Shown here in pieces: positions 21,162 to 31,455 of a DNA stretch of 64,000 bases (position 1 is the stretch's first letter; each line of letters opens with the position of its first letter). The stretch is taken from contig NZ_FTNC01000001.1 in assembly GCF_900156285.1 (NCBI RefSeq), forward strand, positions 124,001-188,000. Reading direction: 5' to 3'. The DNA is from Halanaerobium kushneri (lineage in GTDB: Bacteria > Bacillota > Halanaerobiia > Halanaerobiales > Halanaerobiaceae). Made by a program: the position numbers and the translations under genes. The notes under the pieces are model-generated. The model saw only the letters and a program-made list of their open reading frames with translations. It was not told where the DNA came from and did no database searches.

Positions 21162-21731
21162 ATGAATAAGTTTATTAAACAAATAGAAATGGGAAAATCC
21201 AATGCTTATTTAATAGAGACTGCAAAGGGTTATATTTTAGTTGATGCCGGAACGCCAGATAAAGTTGGAGAAGTAGAAAAAATTTTGGCTGAAAAAAATG
21301 CTGATTTAAAAGATATTTTGCTAATTATAATAACCCATGTTTATTATGACCATGTGGGCAGTTTAGCTGCTCTCAAAGAAAAGACAGGTGCTAAAATACT
21401 GGTTCACGAAAAAGAAAAAGAATTCTTAGAAAAAGGCAGAACTGATTTTCCTGCCGGAACAGTTATTATATCTAAGTTAATTTCTAAGCTGAGCAATCTT
21501 ATTTCAGAATCTAAGTTTAAAGCACTAAGCCCAGATATTACATTTGAAGATCATTATGACTTAAAAAAATATGAAATCGATGGGGAAATCATCCACACTC
21601 CGGGCCATACCAGGGGATCTATAAGTGTAATAATAAATGGAGAAGATATAATTTGTGGTGACACTTTATTTAACTTTATGCCTCATTCTGTATATCCTCC
21701 CTTTGCCAATAAAAAAATATGGCTTAACTGA
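21162..21731 (+). pseudogene. 3'-truncated metallo-beta-lactamase fold hydrolase
   Basis: The gene starts well (ATG 21162 after AAGGGGG) and shows the MBL fold: ILVDAGTPDKVGE, IITHVYYDHVGS, IIHTPGHTRGSISV and IICGDTLF. Two things are wrong. The first zinc motif HxHxDH reads H-V-Y-Y-D-H, so one His is Tyr, and the last strand-helix with the PGHG motif is missing: the frame ends about 60 residues early at 21731, where the DNA switches to a DUF2164 gene. Some activity cannot be excluded, but I read it as a decayed gene. Confidence 0.65.
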
Positions 21732-27930: not shown

Positions 27931-29445
27931 ATGAAATATAATTTTATAAACAAAGTAAAAAAAGAAAAATTCAGAATAATTATTATCGCATTAATAACTG
28001 CAGTTCTTTTATTTTCTGCTGCAAAAATTTATCCTGATGGAAGTATTAATGAAGATCAAAGTTTAGATGAATTTATCAATGATCTTGATTCTCGAATTTC
28101 TATTTTGATGAAAGATTATCAAATACCCGGACTCAATATTGCTTTAATCAAAGAGGGTAATTTAAGCTGGATAAAAGCTTATGGTTATGCAGATCTTAGT
28201 GAAAATAGGGAAATGACTACTGATACTTACTGCAGGGTAGAATCTATATCTAAATCTGTTACTGCCTGGGGGATTATGAAACTGGTAGAAGAGGAGAAAT
28301 TAGCTCTCGATGAACCAGTTGAAAAGTATATAAAAAACTGGAAGTTTCCAGATTCAAATTTTGAGCATCAGAAAATAACTGCAGAGCAATTATTAAGTCA
28401 TACTGCAGGTCTGCCGCTGGGGACTATTGGTGAAGATGCTTTATATCACCCTGAAGAAGATATACCTTCTCTTAGGGATGCTTTAAGCAGTGAAGTAATT
28501 CCTTTCCAGGAAACTGCTAAGTCTTTTTACTATTCTGATACAGGCTATAATCTCTTAGAACTGCTCATTGAAGAAATAACCGAGCAAAATTTTGCAGAAT
28601 ATATGAGAAAAGAGATTCTGCTTCCACTTGGAATGAACAATTCAAGTTACAGCTGGAGTAAAGAGTGGAAACCTGAAGTTCCTAATGGTTATGATGTTAA
28701 CGGAAAAGCTGTACCTGTCTACACATATTCAATGAAGGCATCTGGAAATCTATATTCAACAGTTGAAGACACTGCTAAATTTGTGATCGCTGGTCTTAAC
28801 AGTTCATTTAATAATAATCAACTTCTTAAATCAGAGAGTCTAGAGAAAATGTACAAGCCGGCAGTAAAAGATATCCCAGGCTATTATGGAATTGTATTTG
28901 AATCCTATGGTTTGGGCCATTATCTTGAATGGTTTAAAAATGGGATGAAATCAGTCTCACATGGAGGCCAGGGAACTGGCTGGATGTCTCACTTTCAGTC
29001 AGTACCTGAAACAGGGGATGGAATAATTATTTTAACTAACAGTCAGCGCAGCTGGCCTGCCTTTGCTTATATATTAAGAGCTTGGACCTCCTGGTCCGGT
29101 CTCTCTGCAGCCGGAATGGAGATAATTATTACAGGGCAAAAACTTTTATGGGGGATTACAGCCTTACTTATATTTATTTCTCTCTGGAAACTATCATTAA
29201 TTATTGAAGGGTTGATCAGCAGCAGACAAAATTTTTCACCTAAAAAAAAGATTTCAAAAATTATTCTCATTTCTAAATTAGCATTATCTCTATTAATTAT
29301 TTTTATTGTATTATATGCTGTCAACATGGAATATCAGCCCTTATATTCCATATTTCCCATAGCTTCTCACTGGTTTTTTTACTCGCTGCTGAGTGTAGGT
29401 GTTTTAATTATGCTTCAGTTATTATTCTCTGTTCAAAGAAATTAG
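27931..29445 (+). CDS. Membrane-anchored serine hydrolase (class C beta-lactamase/PBP4* family)
   Basis: A 504-residue protein. An N-terminal hydrophobic segment (about residues 15-33) anchors or exports it. The hydrolase core shows VESISKSVTAWG with the S-x-x-K nucleophile, FYYSDTGYNLLE in place of the Tyr-x-Asn motif (here Tyr-Ser-Asp), and VSHGGQGTGW as the H-x-G motif. Three hydrophobic helices follow near residues 390-500. Relatives are D-amino-acid or peptidoglycan peptidases and esterases; true beta-lactamase activity is not implied. The ribosome site is weak (TGAGGTTTG). Confidence 0.8.
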   Translation: MKYNFINKVKKEKFRIIIIALITAVLLFSAAKIYPDGSINEDQSLDEFINDLDSRISILMKDYQIPGLNIALIKEGNLSWIKAYGYADLSENREMTTDTYCRVESISKSVTAWGIMKLVEEEKLALDEPVEKYIKNWKFPDSNFEHQKITAEQLLSHTAGLPLGTIGEDALYHPEEDIPSLRDALSSEVIPFQETAKSFYYSDTGYNLLELLIEEITEQNFAEYMRKEILLPLGMNNSSYSWSKEWKPEVPNGYDVNGKAVPVYTYSMKASGNLYSTVEDTAKFVIAGLNSSFNNNQLLKSESLEKMYKPAVKDIPGYYGIVFESYGLGHYLEWFKNGMKSVSHGGQGTGWMSHFQSVPETGDGIIILTNSQRSWPAFAYILRAWTSWSGLSAAGMEIIITGQKLLWGITALLIFISLWKLSLIIEGLISSRQNFSPKKKISKIILISKLALSLLIIFIVLYAVNMEYQPLYSIFPIASHWFFYSLLSVGVLIMLQLLFSVQRN

Positions 29446-29523
29446 TGAATATATTTTTTCAAAGGTTTAAAGTTCTACTGATAAATATTTTCTAAAAATC
29501 ATTAAAAAGAAAGAGGGATCAGA

Positions 29524-30714
29524 ATGAAAAAAATCATGATATTTACAGTCGTTTTAATAATTATCTCTTTAACTTTAAATGTTAATGCTCAAACTGTCAC
29601 AGAAATAGAAATATCTGAGCTGGAAAGAAGCAGCAGAGAGTTAATCTTAAAACAGCTTCCCTATACAACCGGAGATATCTATGGTGAGCAAAAACTTATC
29701 CTATCCAGAAAAAGAATCTTTAATAGTGATTTATTTAATCCAATAACTTTTCAGCTTTCAGCTCAAGAAACAAAAAATAATAACTATAAAATATTCATTA
29801 ATGCTGAAGACAGCGGCATCTTTATGATCCATCCCTGGGAGTTTGCAATTAGAAAGACAACAGGTCTGCTTGGAGAAAAATTTGAACAAAAAATACGAAA
29901 CCCTCAGGGTAATGGATTAAGTTACTTATTTGCTCTAGACTGGAGTAATGATTCCTATCAGGACTATGGGCTTGAGTATCTTGGGAAAAAGGGCAGAATT
30001 TATAACTTTAATTACAGAAATTTTGATAGAGATTTAGAATTCAATCAGCAGGACTTTAAATCTAAAGGAGATTTTTATCAGTTTAGTCTAGAAAGCATCC
30101 CGACTGCAGAGATAAAAAATCAATACAGCCTTAAATTTCAGGAAAATGATTACCAAATAAATAACTTAATTCAAAAACAGCAGTACTTAATTCCTGTATA
30201 TAATTTAAACTATGATAAAAGTTTCAACTTTGAGTTTGAGCTCAGCCGTGCATTTTCTTTAAATGACAATTATAATGATTTTAACAGTTTTAAACTCAAT
30301 TTAAATAAAGAATTCAAGCTTAATAATAAATCAAGAATTATTGCTGATTTCAAAGGGGGATTCAGCTCAGATAACACCCCACTTAATTACCAATTTACTG
30401 CCGGAGGATTTAGTAAAATTGATGGTGGGATTCCTATTCGAGGACAGGACTATGAGTTTGCAGGAACAAAATATATTAAAAACACTCTGGAATATCACAG
30501 GATGCTCTGGAGGAGGGACTTATGGGGAGTTATTTTTATTGATAATGCTAAAATTGCAGCTGCGGATAAGGAATTTGGAGATCTCAGCTGGGAAAATGAT
30601 GCTGGCTTAGGATTGATCTATTATACATTTTTAGGGCCGATTAGAGCAGATATTGCTTTTGATAATGGAAATAGTTCACCACAATTTAAGATTGGTTTTG
30701 GAAACTCATTCTAA
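29524..30714 (+). CDS. Small Omp85-superfamily outer-membrane protein (one POTRA plus barrel)
   Basis: A 396-residue exported protein. Residues 1-22 are a signal peptide ending VNA. Residues 23-95 look like one POTRA module (VTEIEISELERSSRELILKQ, then TGDIYGEQKLILSRKRIFNS). The rest alternates polar and hydrophobic residues, as a beta barrel does; GGIPIRGQDYEF recalls the Omp85 lid-lock motif VRGY/F, and the chain ends FKIGFGNSF with a final Phe, the classical outer-membrane insertion signal. BamA has five POTRAs, so this is a reduced form. It implies a second membrane. The ribosome site is AGAGGGA. Confidence 0.72.
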   Translation: MKKIMIFTVVLIIISLTLNVNAQTVTEIEISELERSSRELILKQLPYTTGDIYGEQKLILSRKRIFNSDLFNPITFQLSAQETKNNNYKIFINAEDSGIFMIHPWEFAIRKTTGLLGEKFEQKIRNPQGNGLSYLFALDWSNDSYQDYGLEYLGKKGRIYNFNYRNFDRDLEFNQQDFKSKGDFYQFSLESIPTAEIKNQYSLKFQENDYQINNLIQKQQYLIPVYNLNYDKSFNFEFELSRAFSLNDNYNDFNSFKLNLNKEFKLNNKSRIIADFKGGFSSDNTPLNYQFTAGGFSKIDGGIPIRGQDYEFAGTKYIKNTLEYHRMLWRRDLWGVIFIDNAKIAAADKEFGDLSWENDAGLGLIYYTFLGPIRADIAFDNGNSSPQFKIGFGNSF

Positions 30715-30837: not shown

Positions 30838-31455
30838 ATGAAAAAACTGCTTTTAAAAAGCATAATTACAGCTGGATTATTTCTGATCTTTGTACTTTTA
30901 TTAAACACAGCTGCCGCAGCTGAAGAGCAGGGGATAATTAAAGCCAAAGCTGCTGAACAGATAATTAAGGAAAAGTCTGAAAAAGTAATAGGGCTCATTG
31001 CTGCCAGGGATTTTAAGAAGCTTGCTGATTATGTGCACCCAGAAAAGGGACTGCGATTTACTCCCTACACTCACGTTAGGCCAGAAAAAGATATAAACTT
31101 GACTAAAGAACAGGTAAGCAATTTTTTTAAGATCAATAAAAATTATCTCTGGGGCTATTATGACGGCAGCGGTAAAGAAATAAGATTAACTCCAGAAGAA
31201 TATTATCATCAATTTATTTATACTAATAATTTTATAAATGCAGAAAAAATTGGGTATAATGAAATATTAAGCAGTGGTAACATGATAGAAAATCAGTTTA
31301 AAGTATATGAAAAACCAATTATTGTTGAATATTATTTTCCAGGTTTTAAAGCAAAATTTGGAGGAATGGACTGGAAAAGTTTACGCCTGGTCTTTGAAAA
31401 ATATAAAGATAATTGGAAATTAAGAGGGATTATCCATAATCAGTGGACTATATAA
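30838..31455 (+). CDS. Exported protein of unknown function
   Basis: A 205-residue protein with a clear signal peptide (KKLLLKSIITAGLFLIFVLL, cut after NTAAAA). The mature part has LADYVHPEKGLRFTPYTHV, EEYYHQFIYTNNF, IIVEYYFPGF and an end WKLRGIIHNQWTI. The pattern of conserved aromatic residues suggests an NTF2- or lipocalin-like small domain, but I do not recognise a named family. It sits outside the cytoplasm, next to a protein with an outer-membrane barrel. The ribosome site is TAGGTGA. Confidence 0.65.
   Translation: MKKLLLKSIITAGLFLIFVLLLNTAAAAEEQGIIKAKAAEQIIKEKSEKVIGLIAARDFKKLADYVHPEKGLRFTPYTHVRPEKDINLTKEQVSNFFKINKNYLWGYYDGSGKEIRLTPEEYYHQFIYTNNFINAEKIGYNEILSSGNMIENQFKVYEKPIIVEYYFPGFKAKFGGMDWKSLRLVFEKYKDNWKLRGIIHNQWTI

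What the first reader, a model, noticed from the sequence alone, without database searches (positions are those of the whole stretch)
29524..30714. Minimal Omp85 protein with a single POTRA domain in a low-GC Firmicute
Signal peptide, one POTRA-like module, a barrel region with an RGQ lid-lock-like motif and C-terminal Phe. It indicates an outer membrane and a reduced Omp85 that is not the five-POTRA BamA. The next-but-one protein is also exported, so they may act together.
Basis: partly seen in the sequence, partly recalled or inferred. Interest (0 to 1): 0.6.

Follow-up and report, generated by a model that had tools for sequence, protein, structure and literature searches.

The report
Orphan member of enzyme-linked Omp85 family
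The gene encodes a small outer-membrane barrel protein with one periplasmic POTRA domain, and its closest relatives in other outer-membraned Bacillota are fused to, or encoded directly beside, exported hydrolase enzymes, which suggests a previously undescribed family of barrel-anchored envelope enzymes whose enzyme partner is missing in this species.

Summary
Window 29524-30714 encodes a 396-aa exported protein with one POTRA followed by a complete Omp85 barrel region. A family profile aligns with POTRA3 plus the whole barrel of TamA/BamA (hhalign 99.8%, E=1.3e-28), and all 15 PDB profile hits are Omp85. The motif Arg and Asp are invariant in 16 relatives. The main BamA lies elsewhere in the genome, with three POTRAs and TamB directly upstream.

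It is not just a shrunken BamA. It belongs to a distinct Omp85 clade found so far in two classes of diderm Bacillota. Its relatives are tied to exported enzymes of three unrelated folds: fused to an alpha/beta-hydrolase, fused to a transglutaminase-like domain, or encoded directly downstream of a C45 Ntn-hydrolase with TPRs. The C45 partner occurs in exactly the 12 genomes that carry that type of barrel. The window gene is an orphan nested with the fusions, still under purifying selection, patchy in its genus and decayed in H. congolense. None of the three partner domains was found in its genome, and the exported neighbours are not conserved partners.

Best reading: a barrel/POTRA platform that holds a periplasmic hydrolase at the outer membrane, as PlpD does with patatin, probably for envelope-lipid upkeep. 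Function is inferred, not shown.

The parts
29524..30714 (+). CDS, 396 aa: orphan single-POTRA Omp85 protein
   Evidence: ortholog 70% identical; dN 0.19, dS 1.88
29512..29517 (+). AGAGGG, ribosome-binding-site-like, shortly before the ATG
   Evidence: read directly from the sequence (print-out)
29524..29589 (+). Sec signal peptide, residues 1-22 (likely cleavage NVNA|Q)
   Evidence: sequence; hydrophobic stretch 1-25 by Kyte-Doolittle
29590..29814 (+). single POTRA domain, about residues 23-97
   Evidence: Pfam POTRA E=0.036, residues 24-86; family profile against BamA POTRAs; hhalign to POTRA3 of TamA/BamA; AF2 b-a-a-b-b
29815..30711 (+). Omp85 beta-barrel region, about residues 98-396, ending in Phe
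   Evidence: hhalign against TamA/BamA to their C-termini; NCBIfam TamA; Foldseek of AF2 models: all listed hits Omp85
30430..30447 (+). IPIRGQ (residues 303-308), counterpart of the (V/I)RG(F/Y) loop-6 motif; R306 invariant in the family
   Evidence: alignment A3
30535..30549 (+). FIDNA (residues 338-342), counterpart of the FxDxG motif; D340 invariant in the family
   Evidence: alignment A3
27931..29445 (+). context only: beta-lactamase-family serine hydrolase with N-terminal signal/TM and three C-terminal TM stretches; not a conserved neighbour
   Evidence: Pfam E=1.1e-55; hydropathy; no homolog in G008 at E<=1e-30
30838..31455 (+). context only: exported 205-aa protein with no family assignment; not next to the ortholog in G008

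Best explanation
The gene encodes an outer-membrane Omp85 barrel with a single periplasmic POTRA. It belongs to a distinct diderm-Bacillota Omp85 clade whose members serve as membrane platforms for exported hydrolases. In relatives the enzyme (alpha/beta-hydrolase or transglutaminase-like) is fused in front of the POTRA, or is a separate C45 Ntn-hydrolase-TPR protein made from the gene just upstream. By analogy with PlpD, the enzyme most likely stays in the periplasm, held by the POTRA under the barrel, where the Omp85 barrel disturbs the inner leaflet and presents acyl-containing substrates (lipids or acyl conjugates). In the window species the fused enzyme has been lost or was never present, and the conserved POTRA-barrel persists as an orphan that either recruits another periplasmic protein or works through the barrel alone. 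Shown: export signal, POTRA+barrel homology, family membership, enzyme linkage in relatives, orphan state, purifying selection. Inferred: location of the enzyme, lipid substrate, present role of the orphan.
For: Homology to POTRA3+barrel. Separate clade from BamA, 100/100, with the window grouped with alpha/beta-hydrolase and transglutaminase fusions at 97/90. Fusions G017 (904 aa) and G054 (932 aa) carry Hydrolase_4 E=2.6e-11 and 7.9e-13; G445 and G446 carry Transglut_core E about 1e-11. C45-TPR gene adjacent in 11 of 12 cases, with 4-bp GTGA/ATGA overlaps or 16-23 bp gaps in those measured; its full-length form is present in exactly the 6/59 and 6/29 genomes that carry this barrel type. The C45 protein is above the NCBIfam C45 cut-off (180.9 against 85) and its nucleophile Cys is invariant. 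PlpD precedent: patatin domain periplasmic, phospholipid levels altered in the mutant (PMC11116518). No Mla permease (PF02405) in 59/59 genomes of the class, in line with PMC10665443.
Against: No enzyme partner is known for the window gene: none of the three partner domains was found in G000 or G008. No substrate or location data exist. The barrel is better conserved than the POTRA between the two orphans (75% against 59%), which would suit a barrel-centred role without a POTRA-held partner. Most genomes of the class lack the family, so it is not essential there.
Confidence: 0.5

Rival explanations
1. Accessory outer-membrane protein assembly factor: a BamA-like Omp85 that helps insert a subset of barrel proteins, as TamA does; the enzyme linkage in relatives is a side development.
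For: General Omp85 function; Heinz and Lithgow assign 1-3-POTRA BamA-like proteins such a role by hypothesis (PMC4104836). The Arg/Asp motif pair is kept. The orphan carries no enzyme.
Against: No TamB or Skp neighbour, unlike the main BamA of this genome. The linkage to enzymes in 16 of 19 POTRA-bearing family members is unexplained. Lost or decayed in most of the genus.
Confidence: 0.25
2. Translocator of a two-partner or type Vd kind: the barrel exports the linked enzyme to the cell surface.
For: Gene order enzyme-then-Omp85 with translational overlap resembles two-partner secretion; type Vd was first proposed for PlpD (PMC4104836).
Against: PlpD itself was shown to keep its enzyme in the periplasm (PMC11116518). 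The enzymes are compact globular hydrolases, not beta-helical TpsA proteins. The orphan has no cargo.
Confidence: 0.12
3. Fading relic: a leftover of an enzyme-Omp85 fusion with no present function.
For: Absent from most of the genus; a deletion and stop in H. congolense; no partner domain in the genome.
Against: Intact frame in two species at 70% identity, dN 0.19 against dS 1.88, barrel 75% identical.
Confidence: 0.1
4. Soluble protein or chance resemblance, not a barrel.
For: Single-sequence Pfam hits are below cut-off; the AF2 models are of low confidence.
Against: hhalign 99.8% over POTRA+barrel; all PDB profile hits and all listed Foldseek hits are Omp85.
Confidence: 0.02

Closest known systems
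PL-Omp85 / PlpD family (patatin-POTRA-Omp85; P. aeruginosa PlpD, F. nucleatum FplA)
   Same: Single POTRA plus Omp85 barrel; in relatives a hydrolase sits in front of the POTRA
   Different: No patatin: partners are an alpha/beta-hydrolase, a transglutaminase-like domain or a separate C45 Ntn hydrolase; the window member has no enzyme at all
TamA (translocation and assembly module)
   Same: Best barrel match by NCBIfam; POTRA3+barrel homology
   Different: One POTRA instead of three; no TamB next door
BamA of the same genome (G000:C14)
   Same: Same superfamily
   Different: Three POTRAs, TamB/BamA/Skp-type locus; a separate clade with 100/100 support
BamA-like subfamily of Heinz and Lithgow 2014
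   Same: 1-3 POTRAs, always in addition to a BamA
   Different: That paper describes no alpha/beta-hydrolase, C45 or transglutaminase linkage; membership of that sequence cluster could not be tested
noNterm Omp85 proteins
   Same: G056 carries a barrel-only relative of this family
   Different: The window member keeps its POTRA

Membership tests
Omp85 superfamily | C-terminal Omp85 barrel homologous over its full length | tested here: met
   hhalign 99.8%, E=1.3e-28 to the barrel end; PDB profile hits all Omp85
Omp85 superfamily | 16 transmembrane strands | tested here: inconclusive
   AF2 models of low confidence, 10 and 14 longer barrel strands resolved
Omp85 superfamily | Loop-6 (V/I)RG motif and FxDxG motif | tested here: met
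   R306 and D340 invariant in 16 members; the last G of the second motif is A in the window protein
Omp85 superfamily | At least one POTRA | tested here: met
   Exactly one
BamA | Multiple POTRAs (three in this genome) and TamB/Skp neighbourhood | tested here: not met
   One POTRA, no such neighbours; the true BamA is elsewhere
TamA | Three POTRAs and an adjacent tamB | tested here: not met
PL-Omp85 / PlpD | N-terminal patatin domain | tested here: not met
   The signal peptide leads straight into the POTRA; relatives carry other enzymes
PL-Omp85 / PlpD | Single POTRA plus Omp85 barrel | tested here: met
PL-Omp85 / PlpD | Homodimer, periplasmic enzyme | not testable with these tools
   needs crosslinking and protease protection
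TpsB (two-partner secretion) | ShlB-type POTRA_2 domain and a TpsA partner | tested here: not met
   No POTRA_2 hit; no large TpsA-like ORF among the listed neighbours
Enzyme-linked single-POTRA Omp85 clade (defined here) | Groups with the clade apart from BamA | tested here: met
   482-545 bits for the ten class members against under 70 bits for BamA; tree 100/100
Enzyme-linked single-POTRA Omp85 clade (defined here) | Linked hydrolase | tested here: not met
   Window and G008 are orphans; no partner found in the genome

The most novel reading that the evidence does not exclude
Diderm Bacillota use one Omp85/POTRA platform with interchangeable enzymes (alpha/beta-hydrolase, C45 Ntn hydrolase, transglutaminase-like) as a modular outer-membrane-anchored enzyme system, which in Halanaerobiia could stand in for the missing Mla pathway; the window gene is a stripped platform that works through a partner in trans or through the barrel itself.
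Probability: 0.3. Interest if true: 0.75.

Novelty: new variant of a known kind. Interest (0 to 1): 0.58.

Why it matters
PlpD showed that an Omp85 barrel can carry a periplasmic lipid enzyme instead of assembling or secreting proteins. A second, independent set of enzyme-Omp85 pairings with three other enzyme folds would make 'enzyme platform' a general Omp85 role. Halanaerobiales lack Mla, so how they manage outer-membrane lipids is open; these proteins are testable candidates. The work also amends the statement that Halanaerobiales carry a single BamA homologue: some carry a second Omp85 of another kind.

Tried and rejected
Single-protein Pfam and PDB searches gave only weak hits, so profiles were used. 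The exported neighbours were considered as partners and rejected because they are not conserved beside the ortholog. Search for the three partner domains elsewhere in the window genome: none found. The promoter/terminator scan showed nothing convincing around the gene. Literature searches for alpha/beta-hydrolase, C45 or transglutaminase Omp85 linkages found none in the held library, which is not proof of absence from the literature.

Full report
WHAT IS THERE. Window 29524-30714 is an intact ORF of 396 aa. It opens with a Sec signal peptide (hydrophobic stretch 1-25), followed by about 75 residues that score weakly as POTRA (E=0.036), and about 300 residues whose last 110 match TamA (E=2.6e-7). 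It is present with 70% identity in one other species of the genus (G008), in a partly syntenic neighbourhood, with dN 0.19 and dS 1.88. The genome is of the same genus as G005, whose contig of 89,473 bp matches the length of a Halanaerobium congolense record returned for the same family query.

IT IS AN OMP85. A profile of the family searched against the PDB hit 15 chains, all BamA or TamA; one of them, entered as a POTRA domain-containing protein, is Fusobacterium BamA. A profile-profile comparison of 16 family members with E. coli TamA plus ten BamA proteins of related Bacillota aligned POTRA3 through the barrel end at 99.8% probability, E=1.3e-28. The Arg of the RGQ motif and the Asp of the FxDxA/G motif are invariant in all 16 members. 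AlphaFold models with only four sequences are weak (pLDDT 42.6 and 53.8) but show the POTRA order of elements and 10 or 14 longer barrel strands, and all 50 listed Foldseek matches for each are TamA or BamA structures. Sixteen strands are therefore likely but not shown.

IT IS NOT THE MAIN BAMA. The PF01103 search found one strong Omp85 in the genome, on another contig: 562 aa, three POTRAs, directly downstream of a 1472-aa TamB, with short exported Skp-like ORFs after it (Skp by eye). This is the TamB/BamA/Skp locus described for Halanaerobiales in PMC5007114, which states that these genomes have a single BamA homologue. The window protein is a second, different Omp85.

THE FAMILY. In 59 genomes of the class, ten carry a full-length member (482-545 bits), while the BamA proteins score under 70 bits against the same profile. 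A further relative (G056) has only the barrel, and H. congolense keeps a remnant with an internal deletion and a stop codon. A sample of the phylum found the family in one more class, where 9 of 29 genomes carry it. In a maximum-likelihood tree the 20 members form one clade apart from BamA (100/100), with two subclades.

ENZYME LINKAGE. In the subclade that holds the window protein (97/90), G017 and G054 carry fusions of 904 and 932 aa: signal sequence, alpha/beta-hydrolase (Hydrolase_4, E=2.6e-11 and 7.9e-13), a helical stretch that looks TPR-like by eye (no Pfam TPR hit), then POTRA and barrel. G017 matches the chromosome length of Halothermothrix orenii (2,578,146 bp, from memory). G445 and G446 carry a transglutaminase-like domain in front of the POTRA (E about 1e-11). 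In the other subclade (92/89) the barrel gene follows a gene for an exported C45 Ntn hydrolase with TPRs: adjacent in 11 of 12 genomes, with 4-bp start/stop overlaps in G040, G045 and G049 and gaps of 16-23 bp in G078, G293, G444 and G159. G192 has the C-terminal piece at its contig edge; in G032 the two genes lie on different contigs. The full-length C45-TPR gene occurs in exactly the six genomes of the first class and the six of the second class that have this barrel type and in no others of those classes. By counting alone that has probability 2e-8 and 2e-6, but related genomes are not independent. The C45 protein exceeds the NCBIfam C45 cut-off, and its nucleophile Cys and GRNLD motif are invariant in nine aligned members.

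THE WINDOW GENE IS AN ORPHAN. Neither the alpha/beta-hydrolase-TPR region, the C45-TPR protein nor the transglutaminase domain was found in G000 or G008 at the thresholds used. The upstream beta-lactamase-family serine hydrolase (27931-29445) has no homolog in G008 at E<=1e-30, and the exported 205-aa protein downstream is not next to the G008 ortholog. Whether the enzyme was lost from a fusion ancestor or never gained cannot be settled with this tree, since the inner order of the subclade is open.

HOW IT MOST LIKELY WORKS. The nearest working model is PlpD, in which a patatin domain sits in the periplasm against the POTRA, the protein dimerises, and loss raises phospholipid levels (PMC11116518). 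The enzyme-POTRA-barrel order of the fusions is the same as in PlpD. I infer that the linked enzymes act at the inner face of the outer membrane. A lipid or acyl substrate is plausible for the alpha/beta-hydrolase and C45 enzymes; for the transglutaminase-like domain a peptide or peptidoglycan substrate is as likely. The Mla permease is absent from the class (0/59; PMC10665443), so another lipid-maintenance route would be useful, but this is context, not proof.

NOVELTY. Heinz and Lithgow 2014 list ten Omp85 subfamilies, with patatin, metallo, WD40, lipoprotein and no-N-terminus forms but no alpha/beta-hydrolase, C45 or transglutaminase linkage. No later paper in the held library was found to describe them. 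I rate the family a new variant of a known kind, and the window protein an orphan member of it.

Noticed in passing
L132:2345-4228 (G000:C5): The window genome also encodes a 627-aa exported patatin protein with a long C-terminal region ending in a barrel-like SYSF; Pfam sees only the patatin. Patatin open frames of 612-659 aa occur in many genomes of the class.
   Followed up: partly
L085:2890-4629 (G339): A 579-aa patatin protein (best PDB match PlpD patatin) lies two genes upstream of a C45 hydrolase + Omp85 pair.
   Followed up: partly
L032:8088-12856 (G017): Upstream of the alpha/beta-hydrolase-Omp85 fusion: ABC ATPase, MacB/LolE-like permease, LolA-like protein (Pfam E=6.4e-18) and two exported proteins with barrel-like C-termini, all on one strand.
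   Followed up: no
L033:5505-8303 (G054): The alpha/beta-hydrolase-Omp85 fusion has a lipobox-like LLTAC near its N-terminus, so both ends may be membrane-attached.
   Followed up: no
L038:8771-9766 (G056): Barrel-only relative of the family (331 aa, no POTRA) on a very long branch.
   Followed up: no
L039:8030-8284 (G005, H. congolense): Pseudogene of the window gene: stop codon in the signal peptide region and deletion of most of the barrel.
   Followed up: yes
window 21162-21731: MBL-fold hydrolase gene matches its G008 homolog (224 aa, 82% identity) only to residue 188; the C-terminal 36 residues are missing.
   Followed up: partly
59 genomes of the class: No MlaE (PF02405) match in any genome, extending the published absence of Mla in Halanaerobiales.
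   Followed up: yes
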